DNA of 64,000 bases. Source: Roseococcus pinisoli. Lineage in GTDB: Bacteria > Pseudomonadota > Alphaproteobacteria > Acetobacterales > Acetobacteraceae. The position numbers and the translations under genes were made by a program. Below, in pieces: positions 3,495-16,293 of the stretch. The notes below the pieces were generated by a model. That model was not told the DNA's origin. It ran no database searches and was given only the letters and a program-made list of their open reading frames with translations. Each line of letters starts with the position of its first letter. Position 1 is the first letter of the stretch. The stretch covers positions 806,001 to 870,000 of the forward strand of contig NZ_JAHCDA010000001.1 of NCBI RefSeq assembly GCF_018413645.1. Reading direction: 5' to 3'.

Positions 3495-4166
3495 ATGCGC
3501 AGCACGGCATGGATGGCCCTCTCGGCCGTCGCTCTTCTCGCGGCCACCGCCCCCTCCGCCTTCGCCCAGGGCATGCTCGGCCGCGGCGGCGCCGCCGTCC
3601 GCCCGCCGGCAGACCAGCGTCCGCGCGAGCCGGCGCCCGCCCTGCCCGGCGTGGCCGCCCAGCGCGGCATCGCGCCGATCCCGGCGGAGACCTCGCCCTC
3701 GGCCATGAATCCGAATGACGCGCTCTTCGATGGCATCGCCCGCGGCGACATCCAGACCGTGCGCGACGCGGTGGCGCGCGGCGCCGACGTGAATGCGCGC
3801 AATGCCCTGGGCCTCACGGCGGTCGATTCCGCCGTGGACCGCGGGCGGCCCGAGATCATGTTCTACCTCTTGTCGATGCGCAGCACGGCCAGCGCGCCGC
3901 CCCCGCCGCCCGAGCGTGCGGCGCCGGACGCCCGGGCCCAGCGCGCCGCCGCGGCCGCCGCAGCCGCCGCCGCGCGCGCCCGTCCGGCACAGGGCTCCGC
4001 GCCCACCGCCTCCACCGGCGGTACCGCCCGCCTTCCGCAGCTGTGGCAGGCCAATGGCGGCGCGCCGCAGCCCTCCATCGGCTTCCTGGGCTTCGATGCG
4101 GGCACGCCCGCCGGTGCCTCGCGGCCGACCGCGGCCGCCGCTACCGCCCGCCGCAACCGGGGCTGA
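3495..4166 (+). CDS. Exported ankyrin-repeat protein
   Basis: A 223-residue protein with a signal peptide (MRSTAWMALSAVALLAATAP, then SAFAQ) places it in the periplasm or outside. Residues about 75-130 carry ankyrin-like helices: NDALFDGIARGDIQTVRDAV, then ARGADVNARNALGLTAVDSA, then VDRGRPEIMFYLL. That is two recognisable units, fewer than usual, followed by an Ala/Pro-rich low-complexity tail. Ankyrin units mediate protein contacts, and the partner is unknown. GAGGAAG at 3481-3487 supports ATG 3495. It converges with the aldehyde dehydrogenase gene across a hairpin 4 bases after the stop. Confidence 0.7.
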   Translation: MRSTAWMALSAVALLAATAPSAFAQGMLGRGGAAVRPPADQRPREPAPALPGVAAQRGIAPIPAETSPSAMNPNDALFDGIARGDIQTVRDAVARGADVNARNALGLTAVDSAVDRGRPEIMFYLLSMRSTASAPPPPPERAAPDARAQRAAAAAAAAAARARPAQGSAPTASTGGTARLPQLWQANGGAPQPSIGFLGFDAGTPAGASRPTAAAATARRNRG

Positions 4167-4202: not shown

Positions 4203-5525
4203 CTATCGCACGAGCCAGCGCGCCAGCCGCCGCGCCATGTCCGAACGCGGCCGGTCGAGCATGCGCGACAGGCTCCAGCCACCGTGCCGTACCCGCGCGC
4301 GCAGATTGCTGAATTCGCGGAAGCCCGCCTCGCCGTTGCGTCGCCCGAAGCCGGATTCGCCCACGCCGCCGAAGGGCAGGCCGGGAAGGGCCGCGTAGTC
4401 CAGCGCCCGGCCGGTCAGCAGCGCGCCTGATTTGGTCGAGGCGGCGATGGTCTTCTCCTCCGCGGGCGTCGCGCCGAAGGCATAGATCGCCAGCGGATGC
4501 GGCCTCGCCCGGATCCAGGCGAGGGCGGCGCTCAGGTCGCGGCATTCCTCCATGGCCAGGAGCGGCCCGAAGATCTCCTCCTCCGCCAGGGCGCCGGCCG
4601 AGGGCACCAGCCCGATGGCATCGGGCCCCGGCCCGGTCCAGACGATGGTGACGCCCGCGCCCAGCCGCTCCAGCCGCGCGCGCTGCGCCGCGTCGATGAC
4701 GGAGGTGCCGGTGTCCGGGATGCCGGCCGCCTGGGCCGCGCGGAGGAAGTCGGCGGCGCTGTGGCCGACCAGCAGCACCGTATCGGGGGCGACGCAGGTT
4801 TGGCCGGCATTCACCGATTTCGCGGCCAGGATGTCGCGCGCGGCACGGTCCAGCTTCGCGTCGGGCAGGACCAGGGCAGGGCACTTGCCGCCGAGTTCGA
4901 GGGTCAGGGGCGTCAGGTGCTCGGCCGCCGCGCGCATGACCTTGCGGCCGGTAGCGGTGCCGCCGGTGAAGACGAGGTGGTCCCAGGGCTGGGCCGCGAA
5001 ATCGGCCGCCACCTCGGGCCCGCCCTGCACCACGGCGGCCATGCCCGGCCCCAGCGCCTCGGTGGCGATCTCCTCGATCAGGGCGGCGATGCGGGGTGCC
5101 GCCTCCGACGGCTTGAGCACGACGCGGTTGCCCGCCGCCAGCGCATCGATGGCCGGCAGCAGGGCCAGCTGCAGCGGGTAGTTCCATGGCGCCATGATGC
5201 CGACGACGCCTTTGGGCACGCATTCCGTCCAGGCACGAGCCGGCAGGAAGGGCAGGGACACCGCGACGGACGCCGGCCGCGCCCAGTCGCGCAGCCATCG
5301 GCGCGAATGCGCGGCCGCCTCGGCGACCAGCAGGACATCCGCCAGCAGGGTGTCGGTGCGATCGCGGCCGCCGAAATCGGCATGGGCCGCCTCGGCGATG
5401 GCATCGGCCCGGCGGATCACCGAGCGGCGCAGGGCGGCAAGAAGCGCGCGGCGCCGTGCCAGGCCGGGCGCGCCGTCCGCAACCTCGAAGGCACGAAGGC
5501 CGGCCAGCGCCTCCGCGGGGGTCAT
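4203..5525 (-). CDS. Aldehyde dehydrogenase, probable C30 carotenoid aldehyde dehydrogenase
   Basis: This 440-residue NAD(P)-dependent aldehyde dehydrogenase belongs to the short class 3-like group that includes coniferyl aldehyde dehydrogenases and staphylococcal diaponeurosporenal dehydrogenase. Motifs are in order: APWNYPLQL, the NAD site FTGGTATGRKVM, the general base in LELGGKCP, the catalytic cysteine in NAGQTCVAPD, EEIFGP, and LPFGGVGESGFGR near the end. It is the last gene of the carotenoid operon, starting 7 bases after the hpnE stop. There it would oxidise the terminal aldehyde made by CrtP to a carboxylic acid. The enzyme family is certain; the carotenoid substrate is inferred from context. 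Confidence 0.85.
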   Translation of the reverse strand: MTPAEALAGLRAFEVADGAPGLARRRALLAALRRSVIRRADAIAEAAHADFGGRDRTDTLLADVLLVAEAAAHSRRWLRDWARPASVAVSLPFLPARAWTECVPKGVVGIMAPWNYPLQLALLPAIDALAAGNRVVLKPSEAAPRIAALIEEIATEALGPGMAAVVQGGPEVAADFAAQPWDHLVFTGGTATGRKVMRAAAEHLTPLTLELGGKCPALVLPDAKLDRAARDILAAKSVNAGQTCVAPDTVLLVGHSAADFLRAAQAAGIPDTGTSVIDAAQRARLERLGAGVTIVWTGPGPDAIGLVPSAGALAEEEIFGPLLAMEECRDLSAALAWIRARPHPLAIYAFGATPAEEKTIAASTKSGALLTGRALDYAALPGLPFGGVGESGFGRRNGEAGFREFSNLRARVRHGGWSLSRMLDRPRSDMARRLARWLVR

Positions 5526-5532
5526 CCCCCGC

Positions 5533-6789
5533 TCATCCGGAGATCGCCCGGGCCGCGGCGGCGCCCGAGAGGATGGCCGCCTCGATGGTCGCCGGCAGGT
5601 CGGGCCAGGTCCAGTCGCCGGCCAGCGCCAGATTGGCCAGCGGCATCCGCGGCGGCCGGGGAACCTGCCCGACGCGATGGCGCGGCGTGGCGCGGCGCTC
5701 CTTCACGACGCGGCAGGGCGGCGGTGCCTCCGGCCAGTCGCCCGCCACCCCGAAGGCGCGCACGGCCTCGAGGATCTCGGCCCAGGCGCGCGGGGCGAGG
5801 GCGCCCACCTCCTGATCGGCCTCGGCATCGCCCGCGCTGACCGTGACGGCGAGGCCGCCGGGGCGGATCAGCACCCATTGGCACAGCGCGCCAACCAGGC
5901 CGAGGAAGCGCACGGGCCCCGGCGAGGTGATGGCGAAATGCAGATTCACGATCGGCGCATGCGCCTCGGGCACCGGCAGCTCGGGCAGCAGCCGCTGCGC
6001 CTCCCAGGGCGGCAGGGCCAGGACCACGCGGTCGTCCGGTCCGAGCGCGGTCTCGTGGTCCTGGAAGACGAGGGCGGTGGCGCGCCGGCCGTCCCGCGCG
6101 ATCTCGCGCAGGCGATGGCCCGGCCGGTAGGCCGCGCCCGCCAGCTCCAGCGCCGCCAGCGCCGGCTCCACGAGGTCCGGGCCCAGGCCGCGCCGCGCCA
6201 CCAGGAGGCGCGTGGCGCCGGGCGCGCCGAGGCGGCGTAGCACCTGGCCCAGCCGCAGGGACGAGGCCTCGGCGGTGGGGGTGTTCAGCGCGGCGATGAC
6301 CAGCGGGTCCACGAAACCGCGCAGGAAGGCGGGGTGCCGCTGCATCGCCTCCGCGACCGTGCGGTCCTCGCCGCGCAGGGCCATGCCGGCCATGGCGAGG
6401 ACGGCCCCGGCCGTGACGCCGGCGGGCCGGCGGGCGGCCTGCCACCAGCCGAAGGGCGACAGCGAGACCAGCCGCGCGGAATGATCCGCCACATCCAGCA
6501 CGGGCAGCCCGCCCGGCTCCGGCTCCAGCCAGAACTGGCGCGCGCCGATGGCGTCGAGGAAGCCGAGCGCCGCCCGGTTGGCGCCGATCAGCGCATGGGT
6601 GCCGTTATCCGTGCCGTCGGGCAGGGCGCGGGCGCGGCCGCCGGCACCGGGCGTGGATTCGTGCAGCGTGACGAGGCGCCCCTGCAACGCCAGCGCATGG
6701 GCGGCAGCGAGGCCGGCAAGGCCCGCGCCCACCACATGCGTCACGCCGACACCCGGCCGCACGGGCGCGTCGGGGAAGGCGGCCGTCAT
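5533..6789 (-). CDS. hpnE: HpnE, hydroxysqualene dehydroxylase
   Basis: A 418-residue FAD-dependent amine-oxidase-fold protein. In the HpnCDE route it reduces hydroxysqualene to squalene. The dinucleotide-binding motif VVGAGLAGLAAAHALALQG is near residue 20, followed by the family segment GGRARAL and GTDNGTHALIGAN. The C-terminal FAD motif is LALAGDWTWPDLPATIEAAI. ATG 6789 overlaps the stop of the HpnC-HpnD fusion gene by 4 bases (ATGA), so the three squalene activities are translationally coupled. The family also contains carotene desaturases, but the position next to HpnC/D and the short length fit HpnE. Confidence 0.88.
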   Translation of the reverse strand: MTAAFPDAPVRPGVGVTHVVGAGLAGLAAAHALALQGRLVTLHESTPGAGGRARALPDGTDNGTHALIGANRAALGFLDAIGARQFWLEPEPGGLPVLDVADHSARLVSLSPFGWWQAARRPAGVTAGAVLAMAGMALRGEDRTVAEAMQRHPAFLRGFVDPLVIAALNTPTAEASSLRLGQVLRRLGAPGATRLLVARRGLGPDLVEPALAALELAGAAYRPGHRLREIARDGRRATALVFQDHETALGPDDRVVLALPPWEAQRLLPELPVPEAHAPIVNLHFAITSPGPVRFLGLVGALCQWVLIRPGGLAVTVSAGDAEADQEVGALAPRAWAEILEAVRAFGVAGDWPEAPPPCRVVKERRATPRHRVGQVPRPPRMPLANLALAGDWTWPDLPATIEAAILSGAAAARAISG

Positions 6790-8411
6790 CGCCCCGTGAC
6801 CGCGAAGACGGCCATGCGCAGCTTCTCGCCCTTGGTCAGGCGGGCGCGGACGCGCGGCAGCGACCAGCCGCGCGCCAACATGTGGTCGAGGATGCGGCGA
6901 TAGCCCCACATCATCACGCGCGCCGGGCGCAGTGCCTCGGTGTCGTAACGGGGCAGCATCGCCTCGGCCTGGAGGTAGCCGGCGGCGGCGCGCGCGGCGA
7001 TCTCGCGGCAGATGCCGGCGAAGGCCGGGTGCGACACGATGGACTTGGCCGGCCCGTCCGGGATGCCGGCCTTGGCCAGCACGCTGAGCGGGACATAGAC
7101 GCGGTCGCGCACCGCATCCTCGTCCACGTCGCGCAGGATATTGGTCAGCTGGAAGGTGTGGCCCAGCGCCAGGCCCCATCCCTCGGCCTTGGGCTCGCCG
7201 AAGATGCGCACGCTCATCGCCCCCACGCTGCCCGCCACGCGCCGGCAGTAGAGGTCGAGCGCCGCCTCGTCGGGCAGGCGCACGCGGTCGCCCGCATCGG
7301 TCTCCATGCCCGCGATCATGGCGTCGCATTCCGCATAGGGGATGTCGAAGGCCGCGCGCGCCCACGCGAGCTCGCGCGACAGGGCGCAGTCCGGATGATC
7401 GAGCTTGGCGCGCCAGCCGGCCAGGAGGCGGCGCTTCTCCGCCTCGGGCATCCGGCCGTCGGCGATGTCGTCCACCACGCGGCAGAAGGCATAGACCGCC
7501 CAGAGGGCCCGGCGGCGGTCGCCCTTCAGCGTCGCCATGCCGCGCGCGAAGGAGGAGCCGGCCCGCTGCACGCGCTCGGCAACGATCACGGCGTCGGAGC
7601 GCGCCGGGAGGACGGCCGCCAGGGCCTCGCGCGCGAAGTCGGCCTTGCCCAGGGCGACGCGGCCCAGCACCGGGTCCGCCTGACGCAGCTTCGCCAGCAG
7701 CCGCCGGGCGAGGCCCGTGGTCATGAGGGATTGCAGGCGCAGGCGGCGCGAGGCCACGAGGCGGGGCAGGGCGGCCGCGCGGTCGAGCTGGTCCTCCACG
7801 CGGTCCAGCGCCGCGTCCAGGATCTCGCGGCGGCGCGCATTGCCGGGCTCGAAGAAAGCTTCCTCACCGCCGGCCAGGGCGAGCCAGGATTGCGGCAGGT
7901 AGACGCGATCGAGCTCGGCGCGGTCGGAGACGAGGTCCTGCAGGTGGTTCAGCACCTGCAGCGCGGTGCAGAGGCCGTCGGCCGCGTGCCGGGCCTCGTC
8001 GGAATCGGTGCCGTGCAGGCGCAGCAGCATCCGGCCCACCGGATCGGCACTGCGCGTGCAGTAATCCTCGAGGTCGGTCCATTCGGCGTAGCGCGCCTGT
8101 TCCGAATCCTGCCGGAAGGCACTCAGCAGCCACCGGGCCTCCTCGGTGCCGACCTTCTGGCGGTGCAGCGCGGCGGCGACCTCCAGCGTCGTGGCCGGAT
8201 CGTCCAGCGCGGCCTCCATGGCGTCGAGGCGCGCCAGCTTCTCCGCGGGCGAGAGGCTCGAGCTGTCGGCGATGTCGTCGGCCGTGCGGGCGAAGCGATA
8301 GAAGGCCATCACCTGGGCGCGCACGGGCTTCGCCAGGATCAGCGAGGCGGTCGGGAAGTTTTCCGTGTCATGGTCCCGGTGCGGAGCTTCCGGGGCAGCC
8401 AGGTCATTCAT
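6786..8411 (-). CDS. hpnCD: Fused HpnC-HpnD: hydroxysqualene synthase and presqualene diphosphate synthase
   Basis: One uninterrupted 541-residue frame holds two complete trans-isoprenyl synthase domains. The first half (about 1-265) is HpnC-like: ENFPTASLILAKPVRAQVMA, the first aspartate motif TADDIAD, and the second region LNHLQDLVSDRAELDRVYLP. The second half (about 270-541) is HpnD-like: VQRAGSSFARGMATLKGDRR, VVDDIADG, and LTNILRDVDEDAVRDRVYVP. HpnD condenses two farnesyl diphosphates to presqualene diphosphate and HpnC converts it to hydroxysqualene. These are normally separate proteins of roughly 280 residues each. The start and stop overlap the glycosyltransferase and hpnE genes by 4 bases each. 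I see no stop codon or frame change in the linker. Confidence 0.9.
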   Translation of the reverse strand: MNDLAAPEAPHRDHDTENFPTASLILAKPVRAQVMAFYRFARTADDIADSSSLSPAEKLARLDAMEAALDDPATTLEVAAALHRQKVGTEEARWLLSAFRQDSEQARYAEWTDLEDYCTRSADPVGRMLLRLHGTDSDEARHAADGLCTALQVLNHLQDLVSDRAELDRVYLPQSWLALAGGEEAFFEPGNARRREILDAALDRVEDQLDRAAALPRLVASRRLRLQSLMTTGLARRLLAKLRQADPVLGRVALGKADFAREALAAVLPARSDAVIVAERVQRAGSSFARGMATLKGDRRRALWAVYAFCRVVDDIADGRMPEAEKRRLLAGWRAKLDHPDCALSRELAWARAAFDIPYAECDAMIAGMETDAGDRVRLPDEAALDLYCRRVAGSVGAMSVRIFGEPKAEGWGLALGHTFQLTNILRDVDEDAVRDRVYVPLSVLAKAGIPDGPAKSIVSHPAFAGICREIAARAAAGYLQAEAMLPRYDTEALRPARVMMWGYRRILDHMLARGWSLPRVRARLTKGEKLRMAVFAVTGR

Positions 8412-9481
8412 GCCGGTCTTGTGCCGGGATATGCGCGGCCTTTCCAGCCCGCCGGATAGCCGAGGGCCCCGCGGGCCAGCGCCGTCCATTGCAGCGCCAG
8501 CGCGACCAGGACCGTCAGGGGATGCAACGGCACGGTCCACCAGGGCTCCCGGCCACGCCAGGCGACGGCGGCCCGGACCGCGAAGCCCAGGAAAATCGCC
8601 GCCGCGGCCCCGGGTGCGGGCAGCAGCAGCCAGGGCCAGAGATGGCCGCCGGCCAGCAGCAGGGTCCAGACCGGCAGACCGATCGGCGTCGCCATCCCCT
8701 CGCGCGCATTCTTGAGAAAGCCGTCCCAGGCCTCGCCGAAGCCCCGATACATGCGGCAGCTGGCCAGCGGCGCGCCGGCGACGATCTCGGTATCGGCGCC
8801 GGATTGCCGGAAGCAGCGGGCGAGGGCGATCCCGTCATGCAGCACGCCCCGGATGGCCGCATGCCCGCCGGTGCGCTCATAGGCGCCGCGCTCGACGAGC
8901 AGGAGCTGCCCGCAGGCCGCGGCCAGGGCGGCCCAGCGTGTCGTCGTCCGCCCCCCGAAGGGCAGGTAGCAGAGCAGCAGAAAGTTGATGAAGGGCACCG
9001 TCAGCGCCTCGCCCAGGCTGCCGATGCGCTGCCGCGGCACCGCACTGACCATCGGCGTCCCGCGCGCGGCCATGGCGGCGGCGGCCCGGGGGGCGAGGCG
9101 CACATCGGCGTCGAGGAAGAGGAGGTGCGTGCCCGTCGCGGCCTCGGCCAGGCGGGCGCAGGCATGCACCTTGCCCGTCCAGCCCGGCGGCAGCGGCGGC
9201 GCCTGGAGCAGGCGGACGCCGGGATATCCGGCGACGATGGCCGCGGTGCCGTCGGTGCTGCCGTCATCCATCACGATCACCTCGACTTCGCAGCCCGTCG
9301 AGGCCAGCGCGGCCTCGAGGCAGGGGCCGATGTTCCCGGCCTCGTTGCGCGCGGGGATGAGGATGGAGACGCGCGTGCCGGCCGGCGGCACGCCGCGCGC
9401 CACCGGCAGCCGGATCAGGTTCAGGAGGCCGAGCAGGGCCGGCAGCAGCGCCAGCGCCAGCGCGATATGCGTGGGCGCCAT
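8408..9481 (-). CDS. crtQ: Family 2 glycosyltransferase, CrtQ-like
   Basis: A 357-residue membrane-anchored GT2 enzyme. An N-terminal hydrophobic helix precedes the GT-A start SILIPARNEAGNIGPCLEAA. The metal and donor site is FLDADV, with DDGSTDGTAA before it. Several segments match staphylococcal 4,4'-diaponeurosporenoate glycosyltransferase CrtQ: PPGWTGKVHAC, TGGHAAIRGVLHDGIALARC, RMYRGFGEAWDGFLKN and a C-terminal GWKGRAYPG. Two or three more membrane helices lie near the C-terminus. It would glycosylate the carotenoid carboxylate. It starts 2 bases after the acyltransferase stop. The hopanoid-associated HpnB family is the main alternative, but no hopanoid cyclase is present. Confidence 0.8.
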   Translation of the reverse strand: MAPTHIALALALLPALLGLLNLIRLPVARGVPPAGTRVSILIPARNEAGNIGPCLEAALASTGCEVEVIVMDDGSTDGTAAIVAGYPGVRLLQAPPLPPGWTGKVHACARLAEAATGTHLLFLDADVRLAPRAAAAMAARGTPMVSAVPRQRIGSLGEALTVPFINFLLLCYLPFGGRTTTRWAALAAACGQLLLVERGAYERTGGHAAIRGVLHDGIALARCFRQSGADTEIVAGAPLASCRMYRGFGEAWDGFLKNAREGMATPIGLPVWTLLLAGGHLWPWLLLPAPGAAAAIFLGFAVRAAVAWRGREPWWTVPLHPLTVLVALALQWTALARGALGYPAGWKGRAYPGTRPA

Positions 9482-9483
9482 GC

Positions 9484-10227
9484 TCAGCCCTCCCGCGCGC
9501 TCGGATCGTGCTCCGGCGCAAAGCGCAGGCGCTGCCAGAGCCCGTAGATGCCGCCCATGCCGCGCCCGCCGCCGATCACCACGCGGAAGCGCGCGGGATC
9601 GCGGCTGATCGCATCGGCGGCGAGCCGATCCATCACCGCCGTCAGGGCGGTGCGGAGGCCTTCCTCGTCCGTCGCCTCGACCGGAGGGCCGAAGGCCATC
9701 AGCGCCTCGCCGCGCTTCTCGGTCCAGTGGGTGTATTCGACGGCCAGCGGCAGGATCACCGCCTCCGGCGCAAGGCGCGGCAGGCGCAGGATGCCGGGCG
9801 CGAGCGGCACCGGGCGCTCGCGCACATCGGCGAAGCGGCCGGGCGCATTGACCCAGAGGAGGTGGCGCGGATCGGCCAGGACCTCCTTCGCGGTCGCGAG
9901 GAAATGGCGCGCGCCGCGCGGCGAATGCTGCTCCACGCCGAAGGCGCCGAGGCGGCGCAGGAAGCCGTATTTCTGCAGGGCCACGGCATCCATCGGCACG
10001 AAGCTGGACCGGTCCGGGAAGAGGCTTCGCGTCGCCAGCAGGACCAGGACGCCATCCCACCAGCCGGGATGGTTGGCGAGGACGATCAGGGGCCGGCCGA
10101 GCGGTGCGTCGGGCTCGCCCCAGCGCGCGAGGCGGAGGGCGCAGAAGCTGCCGGCGAACTGGCGGCGGAACGCGCCCTCGAAGAAGCGCAGCAGGCGCTC
10201 CGACCGCAGGGCGACAGGGCCGCTCAC
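9484..10227 (-). CDS. Acyltransferase of the PlsC/LPLAT fold, probable carotenoid glycoside acylation
   Basis: The 247-residue protein has the acyltransferase block I motif NHPGWWD (NHx4D). It is followed by FVPMDAVALQKYGFLRRLGA and a block III-like VNAPGRFADVRERP, then LPLAVEYTHW. It is probably membrane-associated but has no clear transmembrane helix. Between crtP and the glycosyltransferase it occupies the place of a final acylation step, as CrtO does in staphyloxanthin synthesis. Staphylococcal CrtO is a much smaller protein, so this would be an analogue and not an orthologue. A phospholipid acyltransferase role cannot be excluded. Its ATG overlaps the crtP stop by 4 bases. Confidence 0.75.
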   Translation of the reverse strand: MSGPVALRSERLLRFFEGAFRRQFAGSFCALRLARWGEPDAPLGRPLIVLANHPGWWDGVLVLLATRSLFPDRSSFVPMDAVALQKYGFLRRLGAFGVEQHSPRGARHFLATAKEVLADPRHLLWVNAPGRFADVRERPVPLAPGILRLPRLAPEAVILPLAVEYTHWTEKRGEALMAFGPPVEATDEEGLRTALTAVMDRLAADAISRDPARFRVVIGGGRGMGGIYGLWQRLRFAPEHDPSAREG

Positions 10228-11804
10228 CCGGACAGCTCGGCCTCGCGCCGGCCGGCGAGCTCCGCCTCGGGGCTCATGCCGCTGCCGCCGAGGTCGCGAT
10301 CCATGCTGTCGGCCGCGATCCAGCCGCTCATCATCACCATCGGCATGCCGGGGCCGGGATGCGCGGCGCCGCCGGCCAGATAGAGGCCCTTCACCGCGCG
10401 GCTGCGATTGCCGGGCTTGAAGGCGCCCGTGAAGGTGCCGTGCGAGGCCAGGCCGTAGATCGCGCCGTCCAGCACGCGATAGCGCTCGTGGATGTCGACG
10501 GGCGTCAGCCGACGCTCGACGACGATGCGCTCCTCGATGTCCTCTAGGCCGGCGGTGCGCTTCAGCTTGTCGAGAATTTTTTGCCGGTAGCCGGGGAAGA
10601 GCTGCTCCCAGTCGTGATGCGGGCGCAGGTGCGGCGTATGGACCAGCACGTAGAGGGACTCACCGCCTTCCGGCGCGCTGGTGGGATCGGTGGTCGCCGT
10701 CGCGGCGAGATAGGCGGTGGGATCGGGCGCGGGCTCGCCGCGCTTGTAGATCGCGTCGAACTCCTCCTCCGCGTCGCGCGAGAAGACGAAGTCGTGATGC
10801 GTCAGGTGCTCGTAGCGCCGGTTCAGCCCGAGATAGAGCACGACGCCGGAGCAGGCCGGCTCGTAGCCCTTCTTCGTATAGGCCTCGCCCGCGCGGCCGC
10901 CGACCAGCTCCTTGTAGGTGCGGATGGCGTCCATGTTGGAGATCACCGCGTCGCACATCAGGCGCTCGCCGGTGGTGAGCGTGACGGATTGCATCGCGCC
11001 ATTCTCGATGCCGAACATCGCGACATCGCAGTCGGGCCGCAGCTCCACGCCCAGCTCACCGGCCAGCTTCGCCAGGCCCTCGGCCACGGCACGCGTGCCG
11101 CCCACCGGATACCACACGCCCTCGCTCGCCTGCATGTCACCGATGGAGGCGAGCACGGCGGGCGCGAGATAGGGATTGCTGCCGACATACTGGCAATAGT
11201 GATCCAGCATCTGCGCCAGCCGCTCGTCCGGCACATGGCCACGAATGACCTTCGCGACCGTCTGGCCCATGCGCAGCGCCAGGACATCCTTCAGCGTGTT
11301 CGGCGAGAAATTCTGCTTCACGTCGAGCGTGTCGCCGATGCCCTCGACCGACTTCCAGAAGAAGAATTTTTCCGAGACGCCGTGCAGGTGCTTCGAGACG
11401 TCCTGGAAATTTCTATAGCCATCACCCGCGCCGGTGCCGGGTGCGAATTCGTCCATCATGCGCGCCATGGCATCGACCTTCTCCATCAGGTCGATGCGCG
11501 TGCCGTCGTCGAAGAAGCAGCGCCATTGCGGGTCCAGGCGGATCAGCGGCAGCTCCTTCGCCTGGTCGCGCCCCGCCTCCGCGTAGATCCGGCGCAGCAC
11601 GCGCGGCACGGTGAGGATGGTCGGCCCCATGTCGAAGCGGAATTTTCCCGAGCCGTCCGGCGCGTCGAGGAAGAGCTGCGCCGCCTTGCCGCCCAGCCAG
11701 GAATTCTTGTCCAGCAGCGTGACGCGATGGCCCCGCGCGGCCGCGACGCAGGCCGCGGCTAGGCCGCCCAGCCCCGCGCCGACGACGACAACACGCGCGC
11801 TCAT
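10224..11804 (-). CDS. crtP: CrtP-like carotenoid terminal oxidase (CrtI/CrtN superfamily)
   Basis: A 526-residue FAD enzyme. The dinucleotide site is VVVVGAGLGGLAAACVAAAR followed by GGKAAQL and FDMGPTILTVP. Features shared with staphylococcal 4,4'-diaponeurosporene oxidase CrtP are QWRCFFDDGT, the block YVGSNPYLAPAVL with MQASEGVWYPVGG, VISNMDAIRTYKELV, SGVVLYLGL, AIYGLASH and the C-terminal HPGPGMPMVMMSG. CrtN-type desaturases have HPGxGxP with a different continuation. CrtP oxidises a terminal methyl group of the C30 polyene to an aldehyde. ATG 11804 directly precedes the FAD motif. Methylotroph and planctomycete homologues act on C30 substrates, so the assignment is plausible but not tested. 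Confidence 0.82.
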   Translation of the reverse strand: MSARVVVVGAGLGGLAAACVAAARGHRVTLLDKNSWLGGKAAQLFLDAPDGSGKFRFDMGPTILTVPRVLRRIYAEAGRDQAKELPLIRLDPQWRCFFDDGTRIDLMEKVDAMARMMDEFAPGTGAGDGYRNFQDVSKHLHGVSEKFFFWKSVEGIGDTLDVKQNFSPNTLKDVLALRMGQTVAKVIRGHVPDERLAQMLDHYCQYVGSNPYLAPAVLASIGDMQASEGVWYPVGGTRAVAEGLAKLAGELGVELRPDCDVAMFGIENGAMQSVTLTTGERLMCDAVISNMDAIRTYKELVGGRAGEAYTKKGYEPACSGVVLYLGLNRRYEHLTHHDFVFSRDAEEEFDAIYKRGEPAPDPTAYLAATATTDPTSAPEGGESLYVLVHTPHLRPHHDWEQLFPGYRQKILDKLKRTAGLEDIEERIVVERRLTPVDIHERYRVLDGAIYGLASHGTFTGAFKPGNRSRAVKGLYLAGGAAHPGPGMPMVMMSGWIAADSMDRDLGGSGMSPEAELAGRREAELSG

Positions 11805-11893
11805 GTCCGTGCCCTCGAACACCGGGCGGCGGCTTCGCCGCCTTGGCTTCGCGCTGCGGAAGTGGTGCGGCCTGGAAAGTCGGGACGGGCGAG

Positions 11894-11912
11894 CCGGCCG
11901 CCGCGCGGCCGG
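11894..11912. other. GC-rich hairpin between crtN and crtP
   Basis: CCGGCCGC and GCGGCCGG form a perfect 8-base stem with a 3-base loop in the 142-base gap between the crtN stop and the crtP start. There is no T-run, so it is a weak terminator at most. It may reduce read-through or stabilise one mRNA segment, making expression of the downstream six genes partly independent of crtN. Confidence 0.4.
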
Positions 11913-11946
11913 AGGGCGGCCAATGACATGATCCTGTGATCCTTGC

Positions 11947-13491
11947 TCATGCCATTACCGTGCGCGGTGCCAGGGCGAGTTCCTGCTGCACGAGCTTGGC
12001 GGTGATGCGCGCCCCCTCATAGATCACGGGCAGGCCGGAGCCGGGATGCGTGCCGCCGCCCACGAGGTAGAGGCCCTCGGTGTCGTTGAAGCGGTTGCGG
12101 GGACGGAAGCTGAGCATCTGCATGAGGTCATGGCTGAGGTTGAAGGTGGCGCCGTAGCCCACGGCGAATTCGTCCTGCCAGGATTGCGGGCTGACGATCC
12201 GCTCGTAGCGAATCCTTGGCTCGATGTCGTGCAGGCCCAGGGTCTTCAGCCGATCCAGCGCGAGGCGGCGGTAGCGCGGCGCCTCCGCCTTCCAGTCACC
12301 GCCGTGACGCAGATTGGGCACCGGCACCAGCACGTAGAGCGACGAATGCCCCGGCGGTGCGAGGCTGGGATCGGTGATGCAGGGGTTCTGCACATAGAGG
12401 CTCGGCGCATCGGGCAATTCGCCGCTCTGGATCTGGCGGATGTTGCGCTGATACTCCTCGGCCAGCAGCACATTGTGATGCGCGAGCTGCGGGAAGGTTC
12501 CCTCCACGCCGAGATAGAGCATGAAGGTGGAGCAGGAGTAGCGCGCCTTCTCGATCTTGCGGTCGGACCAGTCCTTGCGCAGATGATCCGGCACCAGCTT
12601 CGGCACGGCATGGGCGAAGTCGGCATTAAGGATCACGGCCTCGGCCGCGATCTCCTTGCCGCCGGCCACCACGCCCGTCGCGCGGCGCCCCGCGAAGGCG
12701 ATGCGCTCGACCGGCGTGTCCAGGCGGATCTCGACGCCGAGGCGCTCCGCCACCCGCGCCATCGCATCGCTCACCGCGCCGCAGCCGCCGCGCGGATGGA
12801 ACACGCCGTGCTCGTATTCGAGGAAGCTCAGGATGGTGAAGAGCGAAGGGCAGCGGAAAGGCGACATGCCCAGGTATTTCGTCTGGAAGCCGAAGGCCAG
12901 GCGCACGCGCGGATCGGCGAAGTAGCGGCGCAGATCCTGGTCGACCTGCTGGTGCGGACGCAGCTGGGGCAGGGACTTCATCACGCCCGGCGTCATCATG
13001 CCGCGATGGCTGAGGAAGGGCCGCTCGAGGAAGGGACGGAACACCTCCAGCTTGCGGCGGTTGTCGTTCATGAAGCGCCGCAACCCCGCGACATCGCCCG
13101 GCGCCAGCGCGGCGATGGCCGCCTCCATGCGGGGAAGGTCGGAGGTCGCCTCCAGCGTCACCTGCGGCTGGCCTTCGAAGACAAGTCGGTATTGCGGATC
13201 GAGGCGGATCAGATCCACCTCCTCGTCGAGATCGGCGCCACAGGCGGCAAAGATCTCCCGCAGGATGCGCGGGTAGAGAAAGAAGGTCGGCCCGAGGTCG
13301 AAGCGGTAGCCTTCGGGCGAGGTCAGCGTGCGCGTGCGGCCGCCCACCACGCCGTCCTTCTCGAAGAGCGTGACGCGCGCGCCGGCGGCGGCCAGCTGCA
13401 TCGCGGCCGCCAACCCGCCGGGGCCAGCGCCCACCACGGCGACATGCGGCATCGCGCGGCGCAGATACGGGGCAGACAACGGCGCGTTCAT
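11947..13491 (-). CDS. crtN: CrtN-like C30 carotenoid desaturase
   Basis: A 514-residue phytoene-desaturase-family flavoenzyme. It has the N-terminal FAD motif VAVVGAGPGGLAAAMQLAAA, GGRTRTL and FDLGPTFFLYP. Segments shared with staphylococcal dehydrosqualene desaturase CrtN include LAFGFQTKYLGMSPFRCPSL, FHPRGGCGAVSDAMA, YSCSTFMLYLGV, and the C-terminal VGGGTHPGSGLPVIYEGARI at about 477. The enzyme would introduce conjugated double bonds into squalene or dehydrosqualene. It is the first gene of the operon, with 76 bases between it and the acyl-CoA dehydrogenase gene. The C30 substrate is inferred from the linked squalene genes and from the absence of crtB, crtE and crtY. Confidence 0.84.
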   Translation of the reverse strand: MNAPLSAPYLRRAMPHVAVVGAGPGGLAAAMQLAAAGARVTLFEKDGVVGGRTRTLTSPEGYRFDLGPTFFLYPRILREIFAACGADLDEEVDLIRLDPQYRLVFEGQPQVTLEATSDLPRMEAAIAALAPGDVAGLRRFMNDNRRKLEVFRPFLERPFLSHRGMMTPGVMKSLPQLRPHQQVDQDLRRYFADPRVRLAFGFQTKYLGMSPFRCPSLFTILSFLEYEHGVFHPRGGCGAVSDAMARVAERLGVEIRLDTPVERIAFAGRRATGVVAGGKEIAAEAVILNADFAHAVPKLVPDHLRKDWSDRKIEKARYSCSTFMLYLGVEGTFPQLAHHNVLLAEEYQRNIRQIQSGELPDAPSLYVQNPCITDPSLAPPGHSSLYVLVPVPNLRHGGDWKAEAPRYRRLALDRLKTLGLHDIEPRIRYERIVSPQSWQDEFAVGYGATFNLSHDLMQMLSFRPRNRFNDTEGLYLVGGGTHPGSGLPVIYEGARITAKLVQQELALAPRTVMA

Positions 13492-13567: not shown

Positions 13568-15171
<1,604 letters not shown>

Positions 15172-15175
<4 letters not shown>

Positions 15176-16293
15176 GGGGTCACCACCTCGTCGCCCGCGG
15201 CCCAGGCGGGCAGGAAGGCCTCCAGCTCGGGCTTCGCGATGGCCTCGGCCAGGCGCGCGCCCAGCACCGGACCGAACTTGAAGCCATGGCCCGAGAAGCC
15301 GGACATCACCCAGGCGCGGCGGGAGATCTTCTCCACGACGAAGCGCTCGTCGGGCTCCACGTCGTAGAAGCAGGTCGCGGTGCCGAGCGGCGCGAAGCGC
15401 TCCAGCCCCGGGATGCGCCGCCGCGCCAGCGCCAGGATGCGTTCCGCCTCGCGCGGATCGGCGCTGCGGTCCGGATCGTCGGGGTCGCCCTGCAGGGAGA
15501 AGCTGTGGTCGCCGATCTTGAGCGGCGTGCCGGCCACGGGTGGGACCATGTAGAAGCCGCCGGCGAGGTCGATGATCATCGGCGCCTTCGCGAAGGCCGC
15601 GGCCAGCTCCGGCGGGGGGCCCAGGCGCACGATCACCTGGCGGGAGGCCGTGACGCGCTGGCCGATGCCGGGCAGCAGCCGGGGAATCCAGGGCCCGGCC
15701 GCGACGACGAGGACATCGGCGCTGCGGACCGTGCCATCCTCCAGCACCAGCGCGGCGCGCGCCGCATCGACGCGGGTGGCCCGCGCCGTCTCGATCATCG
15801 CGCCGTGCGCGACGACATGCCGGGCCAGCGCGGCCACGATCCGCTCGGCCAGCAGGACGCCGCCCTGGGGGCACCAGAAGGCCCGCGCGATCCCGTCGCC
15901 GGACAGATAGGGGAAGCGCGCCGCGACCTCGGCGCCGGTGAGGTCCGTGACGTCGCGGCCCTCCGCGCCCAGCGCGGCGCGACTGTCGCGGAACCAGTCG
16001 CCGCTGGCCTCGTCGGTCGCCAGCACGCCGGTGGGGATGTGGAGCACCTCGCCCAGCTCGGCCCAGAGCTCGTCCCAGGCGGCATAGGCGGCGTCGACCA
16101 TCCGCATGTACCCGGCCTGCGCGCCATAGGCGTGGCGGATCAGCCGGTGATGGTCCACCGAGGAGCCGAGCGGGTTGGGCGGCGGCGCCTGGTCGACGAC
16201 CCGCACCGCGAAGCCCTCGCGCTGCAGGGCCCGTGCCGTGCTGAGCCCCATGATCCCAGCCCCGAGGACGAGGGCAGTCGGACGCCTTTCCAT
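15172..16293 (-). CDS. FAD-dependent amine oxidase, sarcosine oxidase-like
   Basis: A 373-residue DAO-family flavoprotein. It begins with the FAD motif ALVLGAGIMGLSTARALQRE. The segment GTATCFYDVEPDERFVVEK places a cysteine where monomeric sarcosine oxidase has its covalent FAD link. FSGHGFKFGPVLG near the C-terminus matches the same family. Such enzymes oxidise N-methyl amino acids or related secondary amines and release hydrogen peroxide. It is translationally coupled to the acyl-CoA dehydrogenase. The length matches monomeric sarcosine oxidase at about 390. N-methyltryptophan or pipecolate oxidase activity would also fit. Confidence 0.82.

What the first reader, a model, noticed from the sequence alone, without database searches (positions are those of the whole stretch)
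4203..13491. Staphyloxanthin-like C30 carotenoid operon built on hopanoid-type squalene enzymes
Seven minus-strand genes in order encode CrtN-like, CrtP-like, LPLAT acyltransferase, CrtQ-like GT2, HpnC-HpnD, HpnE and an aldehyde dehydrogenase. Each has visible family motifs, and four of the six junctions overlap or are within 10 bases. Established knowledge: CrtM, CrtN, CrtP, AldH, CrtQ and CrtO make staphyloxanthin from farnesyl diphosphate; HpnD, HpnC and HpnE make squalene. Inference: here squalene replaces dehydrosqualene as the precursor, and the end product is a glycosylated, acylated C30 carotenoid acid. A squalene route to C30 carotenoids is known in planctomycetes, but a full glycosylating and acylating set in one operon with aldH included is worth study.
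Basis: partly seen in the sequence, partly recalled or inferred. Interest (0 to 1): 0.82.

Follow-up and report, generated by a model that had tools for sequence, protein, structure and literature searches.

The report
Squalene-route C30 carotenoid operon, fused HpnCD
A Roseococcus-like bacterium carries one gene row that appears to turn farnesyl diphosphate, via squalene, into a sugar-capped red pigment by a route already known from relatives; the twist is that the same row also seems to be the cell's only source of squalene for its hopanoid membrane lipids.

Summary
Seven minus-strand genes (13491 to 4203) encode two CrtI-family flavoenzymes (CrtN/CrtP-like), an LPLAT-like protein, a GT2, HpnC and HpnD fused in one 541-aa frame, HpnE and an aldehyde dehydrogenase. 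The full order recurs in 30 of 48 named loci, including Roseococcus thiosulfatophilus, whose C30 carotenedioate and diglucosyl ester are in print. The pathway reading (squalene to a glycosylated, perhaps acylated C30 diacid) is well supported, but it is the Methylobacterium extorquens / Azospirillum brasilense route rather than a staphyloxanthin variant, and fused hpnCD is already in print. New variant of a known kind, moderate interest.

The parts
11947..13491 (-). crtN-like: CrtI-family desaturase, proposed to desaturate squalene towards diapolycopene
   Evidence: TIGR02734 534 bits against cut-off 238; PDB 4dgk phytoene dehydrogenase E 3.8e-83
10224..11804 (-). crtP-like: CrtI-family flavoenzyme, proposed terminal-methyl oxidase
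   Evidence: TIGR02734 392 bits against cut-off 238; role from its place beside LPLAT and GT2, as META1p3665 in AM1; relatives at E <= 1e-100 in 65 of 200 family genomes
9484..10227 (-). LPLAT-like acyltransferase, proposed to acylate the sugar
   Evidence: PF01553 E 2.4e-4, 21.4 bits, just under the cut-off of 23; conserved place
8408..9481 (-). GT2 glycosyltransferase, proposed to glycosylate the carboxylate
   Evidence: PF00535 E 3.4e-18; HpnB-like at 104 bits only (cut-off 379), while the gene beside shc scores 489 as HpnB
6786..8411 (-). hpnCD: fused HpnC (hydroxysqualene synthase) and HpnD (presqualene diphosphate synthase), 541 aa
   Evidence: HpnC and HpnD models fit the two halves; aspartate motifs kept in both halves; model pLDDT 92, pTM 0.90
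5533..6789 (-). hpnE: hydroxysqualene dehydroxylase
   Evidence: TIGR03467 247 bits over nearly the whole model, cut-off 283
4203..5525 (-). aldH: class-3-like aldehyde dehydrogenase, proposed carotenal to carotenoic acid step
   Evidence: PF00171 E 8.5e-63; closest solved chain steroid aldehyde dehydrogenase 9nxl, E 7.6e-80, with the GQTC and LELGGK stretches present
13568..15175 (-). acyl-CoA dehydrogenase (FadE-like), directly upstream of crtN; role unknown, candidate member
   Evidence: Pfam ACAD domains; upstream of crtN in 36 of 36 testable named loci; of 6 further distinct roseomonad cassettes present in 2, absent in 4
15172..16293 (-). DAO-family FAD oxidoreductase, overlaps the acyl-CoA dehydrogenase gene by 4 bases; conserved in many but not all relatives, probably a neighbour
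   Evidence: PF01266 E 9e-52; no match in the Belnapia loci L061-L063 and L074

Best explanation
A squalene-route C30 carotenoid operon of the kind worked out in Methylobacterium extorquens, here complete from farnesyl diphosphate to product. HpnD half: 2 FPP to presqualene diphosphate; HpnC half: to hydroxysqualene; HpnE: to squalene. The CrtN-like enzyme desaturates squalene, the CrtP-like enzyme oxidises the end methyls to aldehydes, AldH makes the carboxylic acid(s), GT2 adds glucose as an ester and the LPLAT acylates the sugar. Likely product: an (acyl)glucosyl ester of 4,4'-diapolycopene-4,4'-dioic acid. Because it holds the only hpnC and hpnD found in the genome, the same operon should also feed the two squalene-hopene cyclases. 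Shown here: gene families, order, conservation, no CrtB found, a single hpnC/hpnD, no hpnCDE beside either shc. Inferred: every reaction in this organism, the product, and the shared squalene supply.
For: Families and order; conserved order in 30 of 48 named loci; tailoring cassette crtN-crtP-LPLAT-GT2 without hpnCDE in 9 other Acetobacteraceae loci and 5 loci of other families fetched; GT and LPLAT functions shown by deletion and complementation in AM1 (PMC10448405); hpnCDE and crtNPOQ deletions abolish pigment in A. brasilense (PMC13274349); R. thiosulfatophilus holds the operon (L045) and its C30 carotenedioate and diglucosyl ester are reported (PMC12654162); no CrtB found in the own genome; one hpnC/hpnD, two shc, hpnA-hpnB-shc, and no HpnC, HpnD or HpnE match in the 18 kb around each shc.
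Against: HpnE and LPLAT fall below curated cut-offs. CrtN and CrtP both best match the same broad CrtI model, so the split of roles rests on gene order. The review passage on R. thiosulfatophilus names glucosyl esters and no acyl group, and that genome also has a CrtB. Five of 48 loci keep hpnCD-hpnE without crt genes and three lack aldH, so parts are separable. The genome was not searched for further hpnE copies. No AM1 sequence could be compared directly.
Confidence: 0.85

Rival explanations
1. A staphyloxanthin-type pathway: the fused protein acts like CrtM and makes dehydrosqualene directly, and the end product is a mono-acid.
For: The HpnD half resembles CrtM chains in sequence and fold, and CrtN/CrtP/AldH/GT analogues are present.
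Against: The halves fit the HpnC and HpnD models and hpnE follows with a 4-base overlap; two shc genes need squalene and no other SQS_PSY source was found.
Confidence: 0.05
2. A C40 carotenoid pathway in which these desaturases act on phytoene.
For: Both flavoenzymes belong to the CrtI family; phototrophic relatives do carry a CrtB-like protein.
Against: No CrtB found in the window's genome: the third SQS_PSY protein matches no CrtB model and shows FNHEIARARE where I would expect the aspartate-rich motif (my reading).
Confidence: 0.03
3. hpnCD-hpnE serve hopanoids mainly and sit in the carotenoid operon by accident; the pigment genes draw on the same pool without functional coupling.
For: Five of 48 named loci keep hpnCD-hpnE with no crt genes beside them; in G005 the two sets lie on different contigs.
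Against: Tight overlaps within the operon and conserved order across many genera. It does not contradict the pathway, only the coupling.
Confidence: 0.2

Closest known systems
Methylobacterium extorquens AM1 C30 carotenoid genes (META1p1815-1817, 3663-3665, 3670)
   Same: HpnCDE squalene supply, CrtN, CrtP, LPLAT acyltransferase and GT; the GT, LPLAT and CrtP genes have consecutive locus numbers in the same order (PMC10448405)
   Different: There hpnC, hpnD, hpnE and shc form one cluster away from the tailoring genes, and the aldehyde dehydrogenase was not found; here all are in one operon, with hpnCD fused and aldH included
Azospirillum brasilense Sp7 hpnCDE and crtNPOQ-aldH loci
   Same: Squalene route shown by deletions; aldH clustered with crtNPOQ (PMC13274349)
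   Different: Two loci instead of one
Fused HpnCD of subdivision 2 Acidobacteria, some Actinobacteria and Rhodospirillum centenum
   Same: hpnC and hpnD in one gene (PMC5462960)
   Different: Described in a study of hopanoid genes; here it lies in a carotenoid operon
Methylomonas C30 genes (crtN, crtNb, crtNc)
   Same: C30 diacid, 4,4'-diapolycopene-4,4'-dioic acid, as major pigment (PMC10745290, passages)
   Different: hpnCDE not detected there; a squalene synthase lies with the squalene-hopene cyclase gene
Staphyloxanthin pathway of Staphylococcus aureus
   Same: CrtN, CrtP, AldH and glycosyltransferase steps are analogous (PMC10448405)
   Different: CrtM makes dehydrosqualene there; here HpnCD and HpnE, and an LPLAT-like acyltransferase

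Membership tests
Squalene-route C30 carotenoid pathway | HpnC, HpnD and HpnE present to make squalene | tested here: met
   HpnC and HpnD models fit the two halves, whole-protein scores over the cut-offs but summed over both halves; HpnE 247 bits under its cut-off of 283 but nearly full length and in place
Squalene-route C30 carotenoid pathway | CrtN and CrtP flavoenzymes together | tested here: met
   Two full-length CrtI-family proteins over cut-off; which is N and which P rests on synteny
Squalene-route C30 carotenoid pathway | C30 pigment made from squalene | not testable with these tools
   Chemistry known only for a relative with the operon
Staphyloxanthin pathway | CrtM dehydrosqualene synthase | tested here: not met
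   SQS_PSY proteins in the genome: the HpnC and HpnD halves and one protein that fits only HpnD weakly, 73 bits. No CrtM model of its own was run
Staphyloxanthin pathway | CrtO acyltransferase | not tested
   No CrtO sequence compared; the gene is LPLAT-like at 21.4 bits
C40 carotenoid pathway | CrtB phytoene synthase | tested here: not met
   For comparison 4 of 7 named relatives have a protein that fits CrtB best (390-407 bits, curated cut-off 500), the same 4 that have reaction-centre genes
Fused HpnCD | HpnC and HpnD in one frame with both active-site motifs | tested here: met
   541 aa frame; DDxxD and DxxxD in both halves, invariant among 33 aligned
Hopanoid hpnCDE-shc cluster | hpnCDE beside shc | tested here: not met
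   hpnA-hpnB-shc at one locus; no HpnC, HpnD or HpnE match in 18 kb around either shc

The most novel reading that the evidence does not exclude
In the roseomonads a foreign fused hpnCD was taken up next to a carotenoid cassette and displaced the hopanoid locus's own hpnCDE, so that one operon now sets squalene supply for both photoprotective pigment and membrane hopanoids. The fused enzyme passes presqualene diphosphate between its halves, and the conserved acyl-CoA dehydrogenase upstream of crtN adds an unrecognised step, for example shaping the acyl group.
Probability: 0.2. Interest if true: 0.6.

Novelty: new variant of a known kind. Interest (0 to 1): 0.4.

Why it matters
It puts the whole route from FPP to a tailored C30 carotenoid in one compact operon, gives a concrete aldehyde dehydrogenase to test for a step left open in M. 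extorquens, offers a natural HpnC-HpnD fusion for studying how presqualene diphosphate is handed on, and predicts that carotenoid and hopanoid synthesis share one squalene source in many Acetobacteraceae, where earlier authors noted that hopanoid genes are not clustered and one or more is typically missing (PMC8776678, passages).

Tried and rejected
Rejected: that C30 carotenoids are the sole carotenoids of phototrophic relatives. The window's genome has no reaction-centre match, and the four of seven named relatives that have one also have a CrtB-like protein.

Rejected: that fused HpnCD is one ancient gene. A first tree suggested it (63 rows), but its rows from other families came only from a search limited to fused-length scores; with 11 separate pairs and 3 fused ones from other families added, starred branches force at least 6 changes. 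The trees are quick ones with SH-aLRT only. The clade tests were framed after the first tree was seen; one search's test also held three foreign pairs, so repeats it without them. Rows used and dropped: 24 roseomonad rows and 13, out of the loci in hand; L108 (long branch) left out; L135-L137, L160 and L161 also out; near-duplicates L144, L146 and L152 left out from then on.

Considered and not supported: fusion as unique to carotenoid operons. It also occurs with no crt gene near.

Weak or no result: the LPLAT has no NCBIfam match; Foldseek confirmed the fold of single halves, not their pairing; paper searches gave no listing about this operon in Roseococcus or Roseomonas (listings only; one search showed 15 of 18); the PNAS 2022 survey of the squalene route is not held, so it may already show Acetobacteraceae clusters. 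The CrtB-like proteins of relatives and the own HpnE lie under their curated cut-offs.

Full report
What is there. The window belongs to a Roseococcus/Rubritepida-like member of the Acetobacteraceae: its HpnCD is 88-89% identical to Roseococcus sp. SYP-B2431 and a Rubritepida MAG. On the minus strand lie crtN-like (13491-11947), crtP-like (11804-10224), LPLAT-like (10227-9484), GT2 (9481-8408), hpnCD (8411-6786), hpnE (6789-5533) and aldH (5525-4203). Junctions are 142, -4, 2, -4, -4 and 7 bases with the ATG starts that I chose.

The fused enzyme. HpnC and HpnD form one frame of 541 aa without a stop. Its N half aligns with the solved HpnC 4hd1 and its C half with CrtM chains. Among 33 aligned fused proteins (of the 72 fused loci in hand), D45 D46 D49 and D159 D163 of the HpnC half and D314 D315 D318 and D428 D432 of the HpnD half are invariant. 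The AlphaFold model has mean pLDDT 92 and pTM 0.90, which suggests a fixed arrangement of the two domains; transfer of presqualene diphosphate between them is only a guess. Fused hpnCD is not new: it is reported for Acidobacteria, some Actinobacteria and Rhodospirillum centenum (PMC5462960, passages).

Conservation. Of 48 named loci fetched with HpnCD, 30 have the complete order, 10 agree but are cut by a contig end, 3 lack aldH (L056, L058, L065) and 5 lack the crt genes (L064, L070, L072, L075, L085). In 200 genomes of the family, 39 have a roseomonad-type HpnCD at 60% identity or more (37 full length, 2 partial), 39 have a CrtP at 74% or more, and 36 have both; 26 more have a CrtP at 58-69% and no HpnCD of this type. 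These counts are not independent of kinship.

Where the parts come from. Nine other Acetobacteraceae loci and five loci of other families carry crtN-crtP-LPLAT-GT2 without hpnCDE in the stretch fetched. In one of the latter (L155) crtN stands 3 kb from crtP, much as the locus numbers 3665 and 3670 suggest for M. extorquens; that this is a Methylobacterium relative is my guess. In trees, roseomonad HpnCD does not group with the HpnC/HpnD of its own family (AU p 3e-5, quick tree, group chosen after a first tree), and the fused state needs at least 6 changes on starred branches. So HpnC-HpnD fusion has arisen or been lost several times, and the roseomonad copy was probably acquired. In G016, G102 and G159 the cassette lacks hpnCD (G102 and G159 hpnE too), and a separate hpnC/hpnD pair, grouping with that of G479 and not with the family's own, lies elsewhere. 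G162, of G016's genus, holds the fused gene plus a further HpnD-like match.

Squalene supply. The genome (12 contigs, completeness 100) has three SQS_PSY matches: the two halves of HpnCD and a protein on contig 7 that matches no CrtB model. It has two squalene-hopene cyclases. One lies as hpnA-hpnB-shc, all three over their cut-offs, and neither has an HpnC, HpnD or HpnE match in the 18 kb around it, whereas 5 of the 8 loci with a separate hpnC and hpnD fetched have an HpnB-like GT2 beside them. The carotenoid operon is therefore the only source of HpnC and HpnD found; further hpnE copies were not searched for. Earlier authors noted that hopanoid genes in this group are not clustered and one or more is typically missing (PMC8776678, passages).

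Product. In M. extorquens AM1 the same kind of genes make an acylated glucosyl ester of 4,4'-diapolycopenedioic acid; GT and LPLAT were shown by deletion and complementation and no CrtO homologue was found (PMC10448405: abstract, part 1 of Results, section 3.5, Discussion). In A. brasilense deletion of hpnCDE or crtNPOQ abolishes pigment, and aldH lies with crtNPOQ (PMC13274349, passages). R. thiosulfatophilus RB-3, which holds this operon (L045), is said to make a C30 carotenedioate and its diglucosyl ester (PMC12654162, passages). That passage names no acyl group, so acylation is the least certain step. The same genome also has a CrtB-like protein (390 bits, curated cut-off 500) and reaction-centre genes, so its C30 pigment need not be its only carotenoid; in the window's genome neither was found.

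Aldehyde dehydrogenase. The operon's AldH is a class-3-like enzyme, closest to a steroid aldehyde dehydrogenase among solved chains, and distant from the paralogues in its genome (one search lists 13 matches: itself, 10 paralogue loci and two second pieces; two of the 10 loci fall together in the tree). Ten further ALDH genes were found in other lineages: seven beside crtN, one beside GT2, and two beside the CrtI-family gene next to a fused hpnCD (L098, L099); the first eight come from 8 of the 14 non-roseomonad cassettes fetched, the other six showing no ALDH match. The ten form one clade apart from the 19 operon AldH rows, two of which are identical (quick tree; ALDHs from elsewhere in those genomes were not included). 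Two distant ALDHs thus accompany these cassettes, which supports the acid-forming role and offers candidates for the step that two deletions in AM1 did not solve.

Beyond the stated borders. An acyl-CoA dehydrogenase gene (15175-13568) precedes crtN in 36 of 36 named loci with enough upstream sequence (of 37 with crtN) and has no match in the 5 loci without crt genes. Among 6 further distinct roseomonad cassettes it is present in 2 (G005, G003) and absent in 4 (G016, G162, G102, G159); none was seen at the 14 non-roseomonad cassettes, one of which (L159) has too little upstream sequence. It may be an eighth member or a stable neighbour; its nearest solved relatives are probable acyl-CoA dehydrogenases (8png).

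Verdict. It is a new variant of a known kind: complete, compact, with a fused squalene-forming enzyme and an apparent shared squalene supply for pigment and hopanoids. I found no description of this operon in the listings of paper searches or in the passages opened; the main survey of the route (PNAS 2022) was not readable here.

Noticed in passing
window 13568-15175 (-): Acyl-CoA dehydrogenase-family gene conserved directly upstream of crtN in 36 of 36 testable named loci, no match where crt genes are absent (5 loci); role unknown.
   Followed up: partly
window 15172-16293 (-): DAO-family FAD oxidoreductase overlapping the acyl-CoA dehydrogenase gene by 4 bases, conserved in many relatives but with no match in Belnapia loci.
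   Followed up: partly
L135, L136, L137: Three relatives with the carotenoid cassette carry a separate hpnC/hpnD pair that groups with that of G479 of another family, suggesting replacement by transfer.
   Followed up: partly
L036 6536-8569 (-) and L037 7869-9797 (+): Two different squalene-hopene cyclase genes in the window's genome; no HpnC, HpnD or HpnE match lies near either.
   Followed up: partly
L098 8995-12068 and L158: Genome G213 has a second CrtI-family gene beside its fused hpnCD-hpnE, about 0.5 Mb from its C30 cassette.
   Followed up: no
L175, L176, L177, L178: The four of seven named relatives with reaction-centre genes also carry a CrtB-like protein (390-407 bits, cut-off 500); the three without have no such match.
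   Followed up: yes
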